A program made the translations under genes and the position numbers. The notes below the pieces were generated by a model that was not told where the DNA came from, made no database searches, and was given only the letters and a program-made list of their open reading frames with translations. Source: an uncultured Algibacter sp. (GTDB lineage Bacteria; Bacteroidota; Bacteroidia; Flavobacteriales; Flavobacteriaceae). Taken from it: 64,000 nt of DNA. The stretch lies in contig NZ_CANLGU010000002.1 in NCBI RefSeq assembly GCF_947490405.1, positions 794,455 to 858,454 of the forward strand, in the 5' to 3' direction. Shown one piece after another: positions 1 through 14,091 of this stretch (positions are counted from its first letter, which is position 1; every line of letters begins with the position of its first letter).

Positions 1-671
1 TTCCTTGTGGTGTTGCACCTACATCCTTAAATAAGATTGATATTGACTCATTAGGAGTTCAATTAGTTCTAAATACACCGTATAAATGGGGTAAGAATAA
101 ATTATTAGTCTATTTTGTTGATGTAGAGGATGAAGATTTAATGGATAAAACTGTAAAAACTGCAAATACGTGGTCAAGATATTCTAATATCAAGTTTGAA
201 TTAACATCTTCTATTTATGAATCAGATTTGAGAGTGTCTTTTTTAGCAAAGAAGGGCTATGCTTCAGCTCTTGGGATTGAAGCTGAGGAGTATAAGTTTT
301 TAGGTAAACCAACAATTTATCTTCAAAATCTACATAAAAGAACAGATACAGAATTTAAGAGAGTTGTATTGCATGAGTTTGGTCATGCTATAGGTTTAGA
401 GCATGAATTGCAGAATCCTGAAGCAATTATTAAATGGGATTCATCAAAAGTATATAAATATTACGAGAAGATTTATGAATGGGATTCAGTTAAGGTTAAT
501 AAAAACATTTTTAAGAAAATCATAACAGATGACTATAGTAAGTTTGATTCAAAATCTATTATGATATATGCTGTTCCTGATTCTCTGACTAAAAATGGGG
601 TATCAATTCCTTGGCCAAGAGAACTTTCAAAACTAGACAAGAAAACTATTAATATTTTTTATCCATTTTAA
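1..671 (+). CDS. matrixin/astacin-like zinc metalloprotease, 5' truncated by window edge
   Basis: Zinc-binding motif HEFGHAIGLEHE (HExxHxxGxxH). The listed ORF starts at 141, but the frame is open from position 3 upstream (PCGVAPTSLNKIDIDSLGVQLVLNTPYKWGKNKLLVYFVDVEDEDL-M...), so the true start is left of the window. Confidence 0.8.
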   Translation, partial: PCGVAPTSLNKIDIDSLGVQLVLNTPYKWGKNKLLVYFVDVEDEDLMDKTVKTANTWSRYSNIKFELTSSIYESDLRVSFLAKKGYASALGIEAEEYKFLGKPTIYLQNLHKRTDTEFKRVVLHEFGHAIGLEHELQNPEAIIKWDSSKVYKYYEKIYEWDSVKVNKNIFKKIITDDYSKFDSKSIMIYAVPDSLTKNGVSIPWPRELSKLDKKTINIFYPF

Positions 672-682
672 AAAGTTACACT

Positions 683-2233
683 ATGAAGAATTTAATTAAA
701 AAAATCATTACCCTAAGCTGTCTACTTATTTTAAGCTCATCATTTGCTCAAAATAAGGTAAAAGAAAAAGATAATGAAGCTAATAGTGAAAAAGAGACTT
801 CTAATGTAGAGGAAATTAAAATAGATTTTTTGTCAATTGATGATTTTGAATGGAACATTAAAGAAGTAGAACATGGCAAAAAGTATATTGTAAGGATTGA
901 AAATATCAATAGAGGCTTGTACAAAATAACTAGTGCAATTACTCAGCAGGATAATAACACAAAATTGCCAGAAATTTTTAAAGGGATTAAGATTCCTTCT
1001 TATTTGAATTTGTCTCTCCCTGAAATTGAAGATGGCTCTGTTGTTAAAGATGGTTTGAAGTCATTGCCTACTGGGTCAGGGGAAGATAATTATAAAAATG
1101 AAGTAGAGAAAATAAAAACGGAGTATATAAAATTTCAAAAGTTAGTGAATTTGAATAATGATATAAAAAATTTATATGTTTCATGTGACAAGTCTTATGC
1201 TTCAATTAATAATGAATTGATAGGGTTGCTTAAAAATTTCACAGGAGATACTTCAGATGATAAAAGTCATCAGTTGAATGAATTAAAAGAGGCTGTAAAT
1301 ACCATTATCAACTCTGTTATAACTTCATCATATAAGATTAATGAATTGTTGCCTAAGGTAATTGAAGCTATAAATGTAGAGATAGGAAAGAAAAATTTAG
1401 ACATTTACAAATGGGAAGCTAAACCTTTGCCGAAAACTCATGCAAATTATGTTAAGGCTTATGTAATTTATAAAGTGCTAATTGATGATGTGAGTAAATC
1501 AAAGGTTTATATAGAATCATTAAAATCGTTAAAGTCAAAGGCAAATGAACTTGTTGCAGAAATGCGTAAATATAAAGATGAAAATAATATACAAGTTCTT
1601 ATAGATAATTGTAACCTCATTAATGAATCAAATTTTACTTATAAGAGTAAGCCAATAAAAGTAAAAGAAGATGAAGTTAAATTTGATATCAAAATATCAT
1701 CTGATAGTCTTCTTAAATGTGATAAGAACAATGAAGTTGTTTTATTAAAAACCTTGAAAACTAAAGGAGGATGGAAAGTAGATTTCAGCTCAGGAATCTT
1801 TTTCAATGGAGGTAATGATGACTTCCTTGGTAGAGAAATACAGTACAAACCTGTTGATAGCACTACTTCAATCATACAATCTAAAGATGGAGGAGATAGG
1901 TTAATGTTATCAATAGGAGCATTAATGCATATTTACTATAGACAAGGAGAGAAGGTTAATTGGGCTATAAGCCCAGGGTTAAGTACAACATCAGAATTGG
2001 ATGGATTAAATTTTCACTTGGGAGCATCAGCTATATTTGGAAGAAAAAACAGGTTAGTTATTACAGGAGGTGTAACTATGAGAGAGGCAATAATATTAGA
2101 TAGAAATTATAAATTTGACGTAGAATATAATAAAAGTGAGTTGCCAGAATCTCCACCAACTATTAAAGCATTTCCTAAGTTTGGATGGTTTCTGAGTTTA
2201 ACTTACAATTTTTCAAAGTTCAAAACAGAATAG
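683..2233 (+). CDS. exported protein with signal peptide, coiled-coil middle and beta-barrel-like C-terminus (outer membrane candidate)
   Basis: N-terminal MKNLIKKIITLSCLLILSSSFAQ signal peptide; K/E-rich helical centre; C-terminal alternating aromatic strands ending GWFLSLTYNFSKFKTE. Starts 11 nt after the metalloprotease stop. Confidence 0.7.
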   Translation: MKNLIKKIITLSCLLILSSSFAQNKVKEKDNEANSEKETSNVEEIKIDFLSIDDFEWNIKEVEHGKKYIVRIENINRGLYKITSAITQQDNNTKLPEIFKGIKIPSYLNLSLPEIEDGSVVKDGLKSLPTGSGEDNYKNEVEKIKTEYIKFQKLVNLNNDIKNLYVSCDKSYASINNELIGLLKNFTGDTSDDKSHQLNELKEAVNTIINSVITSSYKINELLPKVIEAINVEIGKKNLDIYKWEAKPLPKTHANYVKAYVIYKVLIDDVSKSKVYIESLKSLKSKANELVAEMRKYKDENNIQVLIDNCNLINESNFTYKSKPIKVKEDEVKFDIKISSDSLLKCDKNNEVVLLKTLKTKGGWKVDFSSGIFFNGGNDDFLGREIQYKPVDSTTSIIQSKDGGDRLMLSIGALMHIYYRQGEKVNWAISPGLSTTSELDGLNFHLGASAIFGRKNRLVITGGVTMREAIILDRNYKFDVEYNKSELPESPPTIKAFPKFGWFLSLTYNFSKFKTE

Positions 2234-2341
2234 ACTATTACACCTCTTCTATTGGTGGTAAAAGGCAATTAAGTTTAGTGGTAGAAAAAAGGTGCACTTT
2301 TAGGCATACCTAAATTTAAAATAAATGTAACCTATTGATAA

Positions 2342-2385
2342 TCATAACCCGAAGGTCACTGGTTCGAGTCCAGTTCCCGCTACTA
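2342..2385 (+). other. partial tRNA-fMet (3' half), probable att site of an integrated element
   Basis: tcataaCCCgaaggtcactggttcgagtccagttcccgctacta: CAT anticodon, 3' anticodon strand with CCC, complete T-arm (ACTGG-TTCGAGT-CCAGT), 3' acceptor strand. No matching 5' acceptor, D-arm or 5' anticodon strand upstream. Confidence 0.75.
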
Positions 2386-2418
2386 AAAAAGCCTTCACAT
2401 TTTTGTGAAGGCTTTTTA
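2385..2418 (+). terminator. rho-independent terminator after the tRNA fragment
   Basis: aaaaaagccttcacatttttgtgaaggcttttt hairpin plus T-tract. Confidence 0.8.
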
Positions 2419-2517: not shown

Positions 2518-2682
2518 TAAATTGAAATTTATATCGTACCAGCAGATTAAGCTGCTATAAGTAGAATGTATGGCGGTATACATTATAGAGCTGCAGTTGA
2601 GGTTGGTGTAAGCCAAGGTAGAAATTTAGGCGCCTATATAGTTGATAATTTGAATATGACTGTAGAAAGTGTGCCTCAATAA
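2518..2682 (+). pseudogene. C-terminal remnant of a PAP2 phosphatase/vanadium-dependent haloperoxidase-like protein
   Basis: In-frame translation LEIYIVPAD*AAISRMYGGIHYRAAVEVGVSQGRNLGAYIVDNLNMTVESVPQ*. The GGIHYR...G...G pattern is typical of the family C-terminus; there is an in-frame TAA and no upstream gene body. Confidence 0.6.
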
Positions 2683-2776: not shown

Positions 2777-3880
2777 TTACTTATGAGTTGTTTTCAATAA
2801 AATATTTGAAGATTCTCTTACTACTAATTTAGCATCTAAAATAATTTTATTCAACGTTTGTTTTATCTGTTTTTTATTAGTGTATGATAGAAATGTAAGT
2901 GCAGCTTGTTTACCTATTTCTTCACTGTGTTGATTTATACTTGTAATAGAAGGCGTTACCATAGAAGTAAAAGGTTCATCACCAAAACCCACAAGAGCTA
3001 TATCGTCAGGAATTCTAATTTTGTTTTCATTAAGTATTTGTAGCGCTCCTAATGCGGCATAATCACCAGCGACATAAATAGCATCAGGTCTATTTTCAAG
3101 CTTAAGAAGTTGTGTCATTTTTTTTCTTCCATCTTCAATTGTTAGGCTACTTTCAATAAGAAGTTCGGGCTCTATAGGAAGGTTGTGTTTTTTTAAGGCA
3201 TCAATATAGCCTCTAATTCTATTATTATAAATTCTAGTGCGTTTATAACCTCCAATATGAGCTATTCGTTGTCGTCCTTGATTAACAAGGTGCTCTACAA
3301 TTACATGGCTACTATCATAATCATTAATACCAATATAATCCACATTTAGATCATTCTCACCTCGGTCAAATAATATTAATGGAATACCTTTAGCTTTTAC
3401 TTTTTCATAGTATTCTAAGTTAATAGTTTCATTTGCCATAGAAGCAATAATACCATCGACTTGAGTGAATAATAAGGTGTCTATATTACCACATTCTTTT
3501 TTATAAGATTCGTTTGATTGGGTGATTATAATATTATACCCCTCTTTATTTAAAACTTGTTCTATGTTTTGAATAACAGAAGAGAAAAAGTTACTATTGG
3601 TTCTGGGTACGATAACACCAACCAAATGACTTTTTCCTTTTCTTAAAGCACTAGCAAGATGATTTGGTTGATAATTTAGATTTTTAGCAACCTGTCTTAC
3701 TGCCTTTTTTGTTTTTTCACTAATTCTTGGGTCGTCATGTAATGCTTTAGAAACAGCAGCAGCAGAGATATTTAACACATTTGCAATATCTTTTATTGTA
3801 GTTTTCTTTTTGATATTCAGTTTTTTTATATCTTTGCTTAATCGTTTAAGCAAATGTACTGTATTAAATAAACTAATCAA
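2777..3880 (-). CDS. LacI family transcriptional regulator
   Basis: N-terminal HTH TTIKDIANVLNISAAAVSKALHDDPRISEKTKKAVRQVAKNLNYQPN followed by periplasmic-binding-protein-like domain. The true start is probably a little inside the called ORF. Confidence 0.9.
   Translation of the reverse strand: MISLFNTVHLLKRLSKDIKKLNIKKKTTIKDIANVLNISAAAVSKALHDDPRISEKTKKAVRQVAKNLNYQPNHLASALRKGKSHLVGVIVPRTNSNFFSSVIQNIEQVLNKEGYNIIITQSNESYKKECGNIDTLLFTQVDGIIASMANETINLEYYEKVKAKGIPLILFDRGENDLNVDYIGINDYDSSHVIVEHLVNQGRQRIAHIGGYKRTRIYNNRIRGYIDALKKHNLPIEPELLIESSLTIEDGRKKMTQLLKLENRPDAIYVAGDYAALGALQILNENKIRIPDDIALVGFGDEPFTSMVTPSITSINQHSEEIGKQAALTFLSYTNKKQIKQTLNKIILDAKLVVRESSNILLKTTHK
3834..3853. promoter_or_regulatory. 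putative LacI-family operator
   Basis: ttgcttaatcgtttaagcaa: 20-bp near-perfect palindrome with central CG. Confidence 0.5.
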
Positions 3881-3973: not shown

Positions 3974-5020
3974 ATGGGTAAAGTAGTAACATTTGGAGAA
4001 ATCATGTTAAGATTAGCTCCTCAAGGATTTTTAAGGTTTTCTCAAGCAAATAATTTTGATGCTATTTATGGTGGAGGAGAATCAAACGTAGCTGTTTCCT
4101 TAGCTAATTATGGAGTCGATGTAGATTTCGTAACACGTTTACCAAAAAATGATATTGGTGAGTGTGCTATGATGGAAATGCGTAAAAGAGGTGTAGGTGT
4201 CAATAAGATTGTGTGGGGTGGAGATCGTTTAGGGATTTATTTTTTAGAAACCGGAGCAGTTTCTAGAGGAAGTAAAGTCGTTTATGATAGAGCACATTCT
4301 GCAATTGCTGAAATTGAATCAGGTATGATTGACTGGGATGCTGTTTTTGATGGTGTTGAATGGTTTCATTGGACAGGTATAACACCAGCGATTTCTCAAG
4401 GTGCTGCAGATGTTTGTTTAGAAGCTTTAAAAGTTGCCAGTGCAAAAGGTATTACAATTTCTACAGATTTGAATTACCGTGCAAAACTTTGGAAATATTG
4501 TAGTGATTCTCATAGAGAAGCGGTTATGACTGAGTTAACATCATACTGTGATATTGTTTTAGGGAATGAAGAAGATGCTGAAATGCATTTTGGTATTAAA
4601 CCAGAAGGTATTACGGTTCAAACTCAAGGGCATGATGTTAAAGCAGAAGCTTTCTTATCCGTTTGTCAGCAAATGATGGAAAAATTTCCAAGGGCTAAAA
4701 AAGTAATTACAACTTTAAGAGGTTCTATTTCGGCTTCACACAATACATGGGCAGGAGTTTTATACGATGGAAAGAAAATGTACGAAACACGCCAATACCA
4801 AATTACTGATATTGTAGATAGAGTAGGAGGAGGTGATTCATTTATGGGAGGTTTAATATATGGATTATTAAAATACCCAGAAAATGATCAAAATGCCTTA
4901 GATTTTGCTGTAGCAGCCTCGTGTTTAAAACATACCATTAAAGGTGATGCTAATTTGGTAACAGTTTCTGAAGTAGAAAAATTAATGGGAGGAGATGCAT
5001 CTGGTAGAGTAGCTAGATAG
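3974..5020 (+). CDS. kdgK: PfkB family sugar kinase, probable 2-dehydro-3-deoxygluconokinase
   Basis: GGGESNVAVSLANYG and DIVDRVGGGDSFMGGLIYGLL PfkB signatures; followed by a KDPG aldolase gene. Confidence 0.85.
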   Translation: MGKVVTFGEIMLRLAPQGFLRFSQANNFDAIYGGGESNVAVSLANYGVDVDFVTRLPKNDIGECAMMEMRKRGVGVNKIVWGGDRLGIYFLETGAVSRGSKVVYDRAHSAIAEIESGMIDWDAVFDGVEWFHWTGITPAISQGAADVCLEALKVASAKGITISTDLNYRAKLWKYCSDSHREAVMTELTSYCDIVLGNEEDAEMHFGIKPEGITVQTQGHDVKAEAFLSVCQQMMEKFPRAKKVITTLRGSISASHNTWAGVLYDGKKMYETRQYQITDIVDRVGGGDSFMGGLIYGLLKYPENDQNALDFAVAASCLKHTIKGDANLVTVSEVEKLMGGDASGRVAR

Positions 5021-5110: not shown

Positions 5111-5779
5111 ATGGCACAGTTTACAAGATTAGAAGTAGCACAAACAATGAAAGATACGGGGATGATTCCTTTGTTTTTTCATAATGATATAGAGTTAAGT
5201 AAAAAAGTATTAAAGGCATGCTATGATGGTGGAGCACGTTTAATGGAGTTTACAGCTCGAGGGGATTTTGCTCACGAAGTTTTTGGTGAGTTAACTAAAT
5301 ATGCAATAGCAGAATTACCTGGTATGATAATGGGAGTAGGTTCTGTAACAGATGCAGGTCAAGCATCTATGTATATGGCTTTGGGTGCAAACTTTATAGT
5401 AACACCAGTACTAAGAGAAGATATCGCAATAGTATGTAATAGAAGAAAAGTATTATGGTCACCAGGATGTGGTACATTAACTGAAATTACAAGAGCGGAA
5501 GAATTAGGATGTGAAATAGTAAAGTTATTTCCTGGAGATATTTATGGACCTCAATTTGTTAAGGGTATAAAAGGTCCTCAGCAATGGACGTCGATTATGC
5601 CAACAGGCGGAGTATCGCCAACAGAAGAAAACTTAAAAGGTTGGTTTGATGCAGGCGTTGCATGTGTTGGAATGGGGTCTAAGCTAATTTCAAAAGATAT
5701 TATTGCAAATCAAGATTATGCTAAGTTAGAGCAAGATGTTAAAGCTGCATTAGACATAGTAAAGTCTGTTAGAAAATAA
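5111..5779 (+). CDS. kdgA: bifunctional 4-hydroxy-2-oxoglutarate/2-dehydro-3-deoxy-phosphogluconate aldolase
   Basis: KDPG aldolase family features: GGARLMEFTARG, GVGSVTDAGQA, KLFPGDIYGPQFVKGIKGP, MPTGGVSPTEENL. Confidence 0.88.
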   Translation: MAQFTRLEVAQTMKDTGMIPLFFHNDIELSKKVLKACYDGGARLMEFTARGDFAHEVFGELTKYAIAELPGMIMGVGSVTDAGQASMYMALGANFIVTPVLREDIAIVCNRRKVLWSPGCGTLTEITRAEELGCEIVKLFPGDIYGPQFVKGIKGPQQWTSIMPTGGVSPTEENLKGWFDAGVACVGMGSKLISKDIIANQDYAKLEQDVKAALDIVKSVRK

Positions 5780-5972: not shown

Positions 5973-6677
5973 ATGAAAATAATGAAATATTTAAGTCTTG
6001 GAACTGTGTTATTGTTGCTAGTATCATGTAACAAGAATGGCGTTGCGCAAAAACCTATAAAAACAGAATTAGATTCTGTAAGTTACGCTATTGGAATGGA
6101 TGTAGCTAAAAACGTAAAAGCGAGTTTTGATGATTTTGATAATGATTTGTTTATTCAAGGGTTTTCAAATGCTTTAGATTCTACAAATATGTTGTTAGAT
6201 GAAACAAAAGCGCAACAGGTTATTAGAGCATATTTTCAAAAGAAACAACAAGAAGAAGCATCTAAGCGTCAAGAAGAAGCAAAAGCAAACAAAGAAGAAG
6301 GGGATAAATTCTTAGCAGAGAATAAAACTAAAGACGGTGTACAAACTACAGAAAGTGGCTTACAGTATATCGTTTTAAAAGAAGGAACTGGTGCTAAACC
6401 AACAACTACATCTAAAGTAAAAGTACATTACCATGGAACTTTAATTGACGGAACTGTTTTTGATAGTTCTGTGGATAGAGGAGAGCCAACAGAATTTGGT
6501 GTTACTCAAGTAATAAAAGGGTGGACAGAAGGTTTGCAATTAATGAAAGAAGGTGCTAAATATAAATTCTTTATACCAGGGGATTTAGCTTATGGATCTA
6601 ATCCAAGACCTGGAGGTAAAATTAAGCCTAATTCTACATTAATTTTTGATGTAGAATTATTAGAAATAGTTGAGTAA
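5973..6677 (+). CDS. FKBP-type peptidyl-prolyl cis-trans isomerase lipoprotein
   Basis: Lipobox LLLVSCN; FKBP domain KVHYHGTLIDGTVFDSSVDRGEPTEFGV...IPGDLAYG...IKPNSTLIFDVELLEI. Confidence 0.92.
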   Translation: MKIMKYLSLGTVLLLLVSCNKNGVAQKPIKTELDSVSYAIGMDVAKNVKASFDDFDNDLFIQGFSNALDSTNMLLDETKAQQVIRAYFQKKQQEEASKRQEEAKANKEEGDKFLAENKTKDGVQTTESGLQYIVLKEGTGAKPTTTSKVKVHYHGTLIDGTVFDSSVDRGEPTEFGVTQVIKGWTEGLQLMKEGAKYKFFIPGDLAYGSNPRPGGKIKPNSTLIFDVELLEIVE

Positions 6678-6705
6678 ATTTACTCTAACATTTTAAATAA
6701 TTATT

Positions 6706-11517: not shown

Positions 11518-14091
11518 ATGAAAAAAAGCGTATCAGTTATTTTATTAATGCTTATGTGCACGTTTACATTTGCTCAAAAATTTATTGAAAACCCTGAGTA
11601 CGGATTATCTAAATACCCAGGGGAAATAACAAAAATTGAAATACAGGATACTACAACTGTGTTACATTTTAAAATAAAAAAGTTGCGATGGGGTTATTTT
11701 CATATATTAAAAGAATCTTATATTCAAGATTTAAGTGGTGATAACAAACTATTTGTTACCAAAGTAACAGGTGCCAAATTTAAAAGAAATGATTTTCCAC
11801 CATCAGGAGAAGTAACGTATCAGTTATATTTCCCGCCTATTGATAAAACTGCTAAGACTATTGATTTTGGTGTAGAGAAAGAACGAGGTTGGCATGTTTA
11901 TGATATTGTGTTACAAGAAGATGAAAGTAGTTTGTCAATACCAAAAGAACTAAGGGGGAATTGGCTTTTAGCAGATGGTAGTAATCGTTGGGATTATGGA
12001 TTTAATTCTAAAAATGCCATTATAGAAAGTGCTATTTGGAATTATAAATCTATAGATAAGAAAGAGAATAAATATGCTATTTCTTTAGTAAGTAATGGTA
12101 AGACTAAAACAGTTTTTGCAAAACTAAATAAAAATGGGACGGTAGATTTTGGTAATAGTGCTAAATCTTTAAAAACCTATAGTTTAGAAAAAGTAAATAA
12201 TCCTGCTTTTAAATTAGCTTATGATGTTTTATATAGGGATACAAATTTATTTAAAATAGATTTCACTACATATTCTGGAGTCGTTAAAAACTACACACCA
12301 CGTGCTCAACAAAAAACAGGGATGATATATGTTAACGATATTTTTGTTGGAGAGCAGGTGTCTCATCTACTTAAAATAGCTGATGACGGAAGTTTCTCTG
12401 TAAAGCTTCCAATAAATTACCCGCAATCTATATTGGTTCGTATTGCTAATAGTAATACTTCTGTTTTTGTAGAGCCAGGTAAAGAAATATTTCATTACAT
12501 AGATGGTGGAGATTCATTGTTTATGGGGAGTCTAGCACAAGTAAATTCTGATTTGAATGCGTTAAATGAAATTAAATATTTCGATTACAAAATTATTAGA
12601 GATAGTATTGGAATACTATCGCCTAAAGATTATAAAGCAATTTGTTTAGATGCCCGCGATAAAGAACTTAAAGCTTTAGAGGCCTATAAAAGCTCAAGCT
12701 TTTTAAGCGTAAAAGCACACCAAATTAAGAAACTTGAAATTAATTATGGGACACTAGTAAAAGCATTTGGATACGAAATGTATAAGGGGAGTTTAAAGCG
12801 TAGTAATGAAAAAGCAAAATCTAAAAAAAAGAAAAAGGCTTATAAAGCGTTTGAAGTTGATGAATCGTATTATGATTTTCTAACAAAAGATTTTATTGAT
12901 AATAAATTAGCAGTATTATCAAACGAGTTTTATATTTTAATAAATAGAATAGCTTATGCTAAAATCTTTAAGGAAAATGAAAGGTCTGTGTATTCGTCAA
13001 CAATAGCTGATATGGGAGATTGGCTGCAAAAAAATAACAAAGAGCTTTCTGTTGATGAATTAGCTATGATAGAAATGAGTAAAGAAATTGAAACACCTGA
13101 GGTGCTAAAAAAACAAGAGGCATTTAGAAAGGTTCATGGTAAAGTTCAACAGGCATTTTATAAAAAATATATGAAGGATTATCAAGATTTTTTAAAAGAA
13201 AATAAAGATGAATCTGAAAGTGATACTCCGTTTATGTTAAGAATGGCGGATTATTCTAAGAAAAAAGGAGCTGTTTTACTAGATGAAGAAATTTTAATGC
13301 TTGAGGCTATAAAAACTTTAAAAACACCCGAAGAAGAAGAAAAAGAAAGGGGGTTCAATTCAGAATATGGTAAAGTAAGAAAGGCTTTTTATAAGAAGCA
13401 TAATCATATTATTACAGATATTGCAAGAGATAGAATGGCGTCTAAGAAGCATAACAGGATGAAGAGTTTTTTCGGTGTATCTGATGCATTTTTATTTGAT
13501 ATACTAAAATTACACGATGCAAATAAGAAGTTAAATGATTTTGAAGTATATGATTCAGGAGAATTAAAACAAGTACAAAATGAATTTAATGAGCCAATTT
13601 TTGCTGATTATTTAGCAATTGCTAATAAAAGAACAGCGGAAAAGATAGAAACCAATAGAACTAAAGGCGGCTATACAATTAATACAGTAAAGAAAAGTGA
13701 AGGTGACGAATTATTTGATGCTATGCTTAAAAAGTTTAGAGGAAAAGTAGTTTATGTAGATTTTTGGGCAACTTGGTGTGGTCCTTGTAAATTTGGAATT
13801 AAAAAAATTGAGCCTTTAAAAGAAGAAATGAAAGACGAGGATGTTGTGTTTCTATATGTTACAAATCAAACATCACCAGAAAAAACATGGAAAAATGCTA
13901 TTCCAAATATAAATGGTGAACATTTCAGAGTATCTGCTGATGAGTGGAATTATTTAGCTGATAAATTTAAAATAACAGGAATCCCACATTATACATTAGT
14001 TAACAAAAAAGGAGAGGTTGTAAAACAAAAAATGAGACACATGAATAATAGTATGTTAAAGTCGATTTTAAAGGCAGAAATAGCAAACTAA
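11518..14091 (+). CDS. large secreted TlpA/thioredoxin-like protein
   Basis: Signal peptide; C-terminal thioredoxin fold VVYVDFWATWCGPCKFGIKKIEPLKEEM. Confidence 0.85.
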   Translation: MKKSVSVILLMLMCTFTFAQKFIENPEYGLSKYPGEITKIEIQDTTTVLHFKIKKLRWGYFHILKESYIQDLSGDNKLFVTKVTGAKFKRNDFPPSGEVTYQLYFPPIDKTAKTIDFGVEKERGWHVYDIVLQEDESSLSIPKELRGNWLLADGSNRWDYGFNSKNAIIESAIWNYKSIDKKENKYAISLVSNGKTKTVFAKLNKNGTVDFGNSAKSLKTYSLEKVNNPAFKLAYDVLYRDTNLFKIDFTTYSGVVKNYTPRAQQKTGMIYVNDIFVGEQVSHLLKIADDGSFSVKLPINYPQSILVRIANSNTSVFVEPGKEIFHYIDGGDSLFMGSLAQVNSDLNALNEIKYFDYKIIRDSIGILSPKDYKAICLDARDKELKALEAYKSSSFLSVKAHQIKKLEINYGTLVKAFGYEMYKGSLKRSNEKAKSKKKKKAYKAFEVDESYYDFLTKDFIDNKLAVLSNEFYILINRIAYAKIFKENERSVYSSTIADMGDWLQKNNKELSVDELAMIEMSKEIETPEVLKKQEAFRKVHGKVQQAFYKKYMKDYQDFLKENKDESESDTPFMLRMADYSKKKGAVLLDEEILMLEAIKTLKTPEEEEKERGFNSEYGKVRKAFYKKHNHIITDIARDRMASKKHNRMKSFFGVSDAFLFDILKLHDANKKLNDFEVYDSGELKQVQNEFNEPIFADYLAIANKRTAEKIETNRTKGGYTINTVKKSEGDELFDAMLKKFRGKVVYVDFWATWCGPCKFGIKKIEPLKEEMKDEDVVFLYVTNQTSPEKTWKNAIPNINGEHFRVSADEWNYLADKFKITGIPHYTLVNKKGEVVKQKMRHMNNSMLKSILKAEIAN

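What the first reader, a model, noticed from the sequence alone, without database searches (positions are those of the whole stretch)
2342..2385. Isolated 3' half of initiator tRNA-fMet: probable distal att site of an integrated element
Seen: anticodon CAT with the 3' anticodon strand CCCGA, a full T-arm, 3' acceptor strand and a downstream terminator, but no 5' half. The CCC run matches the GGG/CCC anticodon stem that marks initiator tRNAs. Established: tyrosine-recombinase elements integrate into tRNA 3' ends, leaving an intact tRNA at one junction and a displaced 3' fragment at the other. Inference: an element lies to the left of 2342, with the intact tRNA-fMet and probably its integrase outside the window. 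Insertion in the fMet gene is notable because an essential gene must be rebuilt.
Basis: partly seen in the sequence, partly recalled or inferred. Interest (0 to 1): 0.7.

Follow-up and report, generated by a model that had tools for sequence, protein, structure and literature searches.

The report
Island docked in initiator tRNA gene
The lone tRNA half in this window is the far end of an 18-kb mobile DNA island that a tyrosine integrase inserted into the cell's only initiator tRNA gene, bringing anti-phage restriction genes with it; this is a well-known kind of event, though the site is used repeatedly in this genus.

Summary
ARAGORN finds no tRNA in the window, but the exact 44-nt block at 2342-2385 recurs once in the genome, 18,161 bp to the left on the same contig. 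There it is the 3' half of an intact initiator tRNA-fMet gene (C1xU72, A11:U24, GGG/CCC). A tyrosine integrase of the CTnDOT type starts about 175 bp downstream of that gene, inside the element. The element also carries McrC, McrB, type III Res and Mod, DUF2779, RadC, HTH genes, a metalloprotease and a putative outer-membrane protein. The last two reach into the window at 1-2233. Two congeners show an uninterrupted tRNA plus native terminator, i.e. an empty site. Four other congeners carry their own displaced fMet 3' fragments, at least three beside an integrase from a distant branch. The closest relative of this integrase (66%, in another family) also sits beside tRNA-fMet. The displaced identity blocks nearly all begin at the anticodon loop, which suggests an anticodon-loop crossover. 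This is an ordinary tRNA-targeting genomic island: a new member of a known kind. Modest extras are the sole-copy initiator target, the element-supplied terminator, and reuse of the site by two integrase branches.

The parts
2342..2385 (+). attR core: displaced 3' half of tRNA-fMet (44 nt identical to the intact gene's 3' half)
   Evidence: Exact 44-nt repeat, second copy at G000:C2:778635-778678
2386..2417 (+). Native (pre-integration) intrinsic terminator of the tRNA-fMet gene, now displaced
   Evidence: Hairpin -20 kcal/mol; 87-92% like the sequence directly after the uninterrupted tRNA in G007 and after the displaced fragment in G001
2287..2310 (+). Subterminal repeat at the right end of the element (AAAAGGTGCACTTTTAGGCATACC), likely arm-type integrase site
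   Evidence: 87.5% identical to C2:778787-778810 near the left end; similar GGYRYAC repeats at both ends of the G026 relative (read)
683..2233 (+). Last gene of the element: 516-aa protein with apparent signal peptide, putative outer-membrane protein, no Pfam or PHROG match
   Evidence: lies inside the att repeats; outer-membrane assignment is by eye only
1..671 (+). 3' part of a 274-aa matrixin/astacin-like zinc metallopeptidase of the element (gene starts about 153 bp left of the window)
   Evidence: Pfam PF00413 2.5e-7, PF01400 1.7e-5; coordinates
1..2341 (.). Right-hand 2.3 kb of the 18.16-kb island (whole island: G000:C2:778635-796795). Left of the window, C2 coordinates: integrase 778853-780064 +; p252 780277-781035 +; McrC 781359-782618 -; McrB 782611-785361 -; Res 785377-788055 -; Mod 788065-789630 -; DUF2779 789632-791098 -; p167 791301-791804 +; RadC 791865-792305 +; HTH 792383-792619 -; p221, p179; Xis-like HTH_17 793911-794195 +
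2777..3880 (-). Right chromosomal flank (not part of the element): LacI-family regulator, followed by KDG kinase 3974-5020 and KDPG aldolase 5111-5779
   Evidence: for LacI; kinase and aldolase named by eye; same genes lie right of the tRNA-fMet or its fragment in G001, G003, G009

Best explanation
The fragment is attR of an 18.16-kb genomic island integrated by its own CTnDOT-type tyrosine integrase into the genome's single initiator tRNA gene. attP carried a copy of the tRNA 3' half, from the anticodon loop to the end, followed by a terminator. Recombination with the same stretch of the chromosomal gene left an intact tRNA (host 5' half, element 3' half, element terminator) at attL, and pushed the host's 3' half with its native terminator 18 kb away to window 2342-2417. 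Shown: repeat, intact gene, integrase position, empty sites and recurrence. Inferred: crossover within the anticodon loop, arm sites, HTH_17 protein as excisionase, and anti-phage function of the restriction cargo. Not shown: that the island still excises or transfers. No relaxase, conjugation or virion gene was recognised among its proteins, so mobilisation would need a helper.
For: Exact 44-nt repeat in only two places of the genome. Intact tRNA-Met at the other. Arm-DNA-bind_5/SAM_5/Phage_integrase protein about 175 bp downstream of the tRNA-side repeat. Excisionase-like HTH_17 near the other end. Element GC 28.5% against 31.9% in the flanks. Related integrases lie next to tRNA or tmRNA genes in 17 of 19 relatives' loci. 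The nearest, 66% identical in another family, is beside tRNA-fMet, with a trace of a displaced 3' end 22 kb away. Uninterrupted attB with like terminator in G007 and G002. Conserved LRR-tRNA on the left and LacI-KdgK on the right in congeners.
Against: The displaced fragment beside the closest related integrase (G026) keeps only about the last 21 nt of the tRNA, so an anticodon-loop crossover is not proven for this integrase branch. The two clean empty sites have other genes to the right (kdu/TRAP cluster, nagB-like). G003, which keeps LacI to the right, has 4 kb of other genes in between and a terminator of the element's type. Left- and right-flank conservation is thus shown in different genomes.
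Confidence: 0.96

Rival explanations
1. The fragment is a decayed tRNA gene duplicate or part of a former tRNA cluster, unrelated to integration.
For: Truncated tRNA copies do occur in genomes; the fragment is followed by a good terminator like a real tRNA gene.
Against: The truncation starts exactly at the anticodon loop, the fragment is 100% identical to the intact gene, in the same orientation, 18 kb away, with an integrase beside the intact copy. Congeners show the same geometry with other inserts.
Confidence: 0.02
2. The integrated element is a prophage remnant or phage satellite rather than a plain genomic island.
For: Tyrosine integrase, Cro/CI-like HTH and excisionase-like HTH match phage families.
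Against: No capsid, portal, terminase or tail gene among the proteins scanned; cargo is restriction genes, RadC, a protease and a membrane protein.
Confidence: 0.1
3. The five-gene minus-strand block (DUF2779, Mod, Res, McrB, McrC) works as one composite defence system rather than a type III R-M system that happens to sit next to McrBC.
For: Genes are 1-15 nt apart or overlapping, on one strand. DUF2779 lies close to type III Mod/Res in two other flavobacterial genomes.
Against: McrB/McrC were not found beside the best Mod-Res relative checked (G019), and the other DUF2779 loci have different partners, so the set is not conserved as a unit.
Confidence: 0.2

Closest known systems
tDNA genomic islands as catalogued in Islander (PMC4383910)
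   Same: Regenerated tRNA at one end, displaced 3' fragment at the other, tyrosine integrase inside; identity block starting at the anticodon loop fits their class A site (2083 islands there)
   Different: Only host, cargo and choice of the sole initiator tRNA gene
Integrases of the IntCTnDOT subgroup (PMC8138268), e.g. NBU1 and CTnDOT
   Same: Arm-DNA-bind_5 + SAM_5 + Phage_integrase; box I arginine absent (TGLAY), with a conserved R287-x-K289 that could hold the downstream substitute arginine, as described for IntDOT; NBU1 also targets a tRNA 3' end
   Different: Target is tRNA-fMet; no conjugation or mobilisation genes recognised in this element
ICECleSHZ29 family of Chryseobacterium (PMC12561888)
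   Different: 75-kb ICE with conjugation backbone, 17-bp repeat at the very 3' end rather than 44 nt from the anticodon loop; the passages read do not say initiator or elongator
Phage-related elements of Sinorhizobium meliloti (PMC11476347)
   Same: Phage-related elements linked to tRNA-fMet(CAT) genes
   Different: Prophages in an alphaproteobacterium
VPaI-1 / VSP-II / VVI-I islands at tRNA-Met in Vibrio (PMC1464126)
   Same: tRNA-Met as repeated island site, 45-bp repeat, a restriction gene as cargo in VPaI-1
   Different: Different bacteria and cargo; integrases were not compared here

Membership tests
tRNA-targeting genomic island (Islander definition) | Intact tRNA gene at one end and displaced fragment of the same gene at the other, same orientation | tested here: met
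   44/44 nt, 18,161 bp apart, both + strand
tRNA-targeting genomic island (Islander definition) | Tyrosine integrase gene between the two | tested here: met
   C2:778853-780064, PF00589/PF13102/PF17293
tRNA-targeting genomic island (Islander definition) | Empty site in relatives | tested here: met
   G007 and G002 match the joined attB across the junction at 92% and 89%; right-hand neighbours differ
tRNA-targeting genomic island (Islander definition) | Excision and integration in the laboratory | not testable with these tools
   needs PCR for attP circle and attB
Initiator tRNA-fMet as target | C1xN72 mismatch, A11:U24, three G-C pairs in the anticodon stem | tested here: met
   C1xU72, A11:U24, GGG/CCC read directly from the sequence; other two tRNA-Met(CAT) found match only 74-77% in the 3' half
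IntCTnDOT subgroup of tyrosine recombinases | Arm-binding domain plus core-binding and catalytic domains of the Bacteroidetes type | tested here: met
IntCTnDOT subgroup of tyrosine recombinases | Catalytic K, H, R, H, Y conserved; box I Arg may be missing, replaced by a downstream Arg | tested here: met
   R287, K289, H344, R347, H371, Y381 invariant in 8 sequences; box I position is Ala here; that R287 is the substitute is inferred
Integrative and conjugative element | Relaxase and type IV secretion genes | tested here: not met
   None found among the proteins scanned; some small or unmatched ORFs remain unassigned
Type III restriction-modification system (cargo) | Mod N6/N4 methylase and Res helicase-nuclease, adjacent | tested here: met
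   PADLOC MTase_III 6.9e-201 full length, REase_III 8.6e-71; activity not tested

The most novel reading that the evidence does not exclude
In this flavobacterial genus the sole initiator tRNA gene is a shared dock used by at least two distantly related integrase branches (about 23% identical), one placing its integrase beside the intact tRNA and the other beside the displaced fragment. Each incoming element replaces both the 3' half and the terminator of an essential gene, so that expression of the cell's only initiator tRNA comes to depend on element DNA and imprecise loss of the element is selected against.
Probability: 0.3. Interest if true: 0.45.

Novelty: new member of a known kind. Interest (0 to 1): 0.3.

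Why it matters
It gives a precisely bounded defence-carrying island with both att sites, its integrase and empty counterparts, and shows that a single-copy essential gene (initiator tRNA) is a recurrent dock in this genus. Practical use: an integrase and attB pair for inserting DNA in flavobacteria. Conceptually it is ordinary tDNA island biology.

Tried and rejected
Duplicate or decayed tRNA: rejected by the exact anticodon-loop boundary, the integrase and the repeat. G003 and G009 as clean empty sites: rejected as perfect cases because the terminator after their tRNA resembles the element's left end. A conserved five-gene defence operon: McrBC not found with the Mod/Res or DUF2779 relatives checked. 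No solved structure close to the integrase. Williams 2002 (PMC100330) is not held, so the subsite classes are cited through Islander. One paper look-up failed because of a term that was too short.

Full report
CHECK OF THE OBSERVATION. The window is G000:C2:794455-858454. At 2342-2385 it reads TCATAACCCGAAGGTCACTGGTTCGAGTCCAGTTCCCGCTACTA, followed by a hairpin with a T run at 2386-2417. ARAGORN calls no tRNA in the window, and window shuffles never produce the block even with three mismatches. In the whole genome the block recurs exactly once, at C2:778635-778678. There it is the 3' half of an intact tRNA-Met(CAT) at 778603-778676. The intact tRNA has the initiator marks: C1xU72, A11:U24 and GGG/CCC next to the anticodon loop (read). 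The other two tRNA-Met(CAT) genes typed match the block at only 74-77%, so this initiator gene looks single-copy.

THE ELEMENT. Between the two repeats lie 18,161 bp at 28.5% GC, against about 31.9% in the flanks. From left to right: a 403-aa tyrosine integrase, whose start codon lies about 175 bp after the tRNA-side repeat (PF17293, PF13102, PF00589); a 252-aa protein without matches; then on the minus strand McrC, McrB, a type III Res, a type III Mod and a DUF2779 protein with weak Cas4-like similarity, all 1-15 nt apart or overlapping. Then p167, RadC, a Cro/CI-type HTH, two unknown proteins, an excisionase-like HTH_17 protein, a matrixin-like protease and a 516-aa putative outer-membrane protein. 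The last two occupy window 1-2233. No relaxase, conjugation or virion gene was recognised. Subterminal repeats (AAAAGGYRCACTTTTAGGCAYACC) lie near both ends (one search gives 21 of 24 identical) and look like arm-type sites.

THE JUNCTIONS. At the intact tRNA the sequence after the 44-nt block is a terminator (GCAAAGAGTAATCAGAAATGGTTACTC...). At the displaced fragment it is a different one (AAAAAGCCTTCACATTTTTGTGAAGGC...). The second kind directly follows the uninterrupted tRNA in congener G007, and a joined attB (left flank + tRNA + right flank) matches G007 over positions 39-150 at 92% and G002 over 39-157 at 89%, across the junction at 118/119. So the window's terminator is the native one, and the element replaced both the tRNA 3' half and its terminator. 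The chromosomal frame is conserved in congeners: an LRR gene just left of the tRNA (G001-G005, G007-G009) and LacI-KdgK to the right of the tRNA or its fragment (G001, G003, G009). G003 has tRNA and LacI only about 4 kb apart, without integrase or fragment.

RECURRENCE. In 40 relatives and ten genus members, displaced fMet 3' fragments occur in G001, G004, G005 and G008 of the same genus, with further ones or pieces in G009, G010 and G012. Nearly all begin within tRNA positions 30-33, the 5' edge of the anticodon loop, which is what an anticodon-loop crossover predicts (Islander class A, PMC4383910). In G001, G004 and G008 an integrase of another branch (39-55% identical to the G001 copy, 22.6% between that copy and ours) lies beside the displaced fragment. 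The integrase of the present element has relatives in 42 of 100 genomes searched. Of 19 inspected loci, 17 have a tRNA or tmRNA gene close by: Asn, Ser, Pro, Asp, Lys, tmRNA, and for the nearest relative (66%, G026, another family) tRNA-fMet again. G026 also keeps RadC, p167 and the HTH gene, and about 21 nt of a displaced tRNA end preceded by a similar arm-like repeat 22 kb away. Because that fragment is so short, the crossover site of this branch remains an inference.

MECHANISM. Integrase and arm sites bring attP and the tRNA gene together. Strand exchange in the shared stretch gives attL (intact tRNA, element terminator) and attR (window 2342-2385, native terminator). The alignment of eight relatives shows K289, H344, R347, H371 and Y381 invariant, Ala or Gly in place of the box I arginine, and an invariant R287 two residues before K289. 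PMC8138268 describes such a loss and downstream substitution in the IntCTnDOT subgroup. Excision would reverse the reaction, probably with the HTH_17 protein; this is not shown.

COMPARISON. Islander (PMC4383910) describes this class in general. Targeting of fMet or tRNA-Met(CAT) is on record for S. meliloti phage-related elements (PMC11476347), Chryseobacterium ICEs (PMC12561888) and Vibrio islands (PMC1464126). The find is therefore a new member of a known kind. The cargo is not conserved as a unit: McrBC was not found beside the closest Mod/Res relative (G019), and DUF2779 relatives have other partners. Close Mod relatives were found in only 3 other genomes of 398 in the order.

Noticed in passing
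window 2566-2682: A 38-codon open remnant (MYGGIHYRAAVEVGVSQGRNLGAYIVDNLNMTVESVPQ) just right of attR, which from memory resembles the C-terminus of vanadium haloperoxidase/PAP2 proteins; no Pfam match and no other copy in the genome. Probably a gene cut off by an earlier rearrangement at this site.
   Followed up: partly
L026 (G003) 12819-12869 and L028 (G009) 6650-6683: In two congeners without integrase or fragment at this locus, the terminator after tRNA-fMet is 88-100% like the left end of this element over 34-52 nt: either a scar of a lost element or a native terminator once captured by attP.
   Followed up: partly
G026:C1:2271613-2271639: Displaced fMet fragment of the nearest integrase relative's element keeps only the last ~21 nt, whereas other fragments start at the anticodon loop; different crossover point or erosion, undecided.
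   Followed up: partly
G001, contigs C4, C37, C61, C68: One congener has at least four fMet 3' fragments, two next to integrases 55% identical to each other, suggesting stacked or tandem islands at the same site.
   Followed up: partly
L087 739-11473 and L088 4701-11473: DUF2779 genes (59-60% identical to the island's) lie within a few kb of type III Mod/Res in Tenacibaculum and Winogradskyella; in the latter a related integrase is also near. A possible recurring association of this Cas4-like protein with type III R-M.
   Followed up: partly
L004:13301-14619: p167 (no family match) and RadC recur together near related integrases at different tRNA targets (G026, with the Cro-like HTH as well, and G075), so they look like backbone rather than cargo.
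   Followed up: partly
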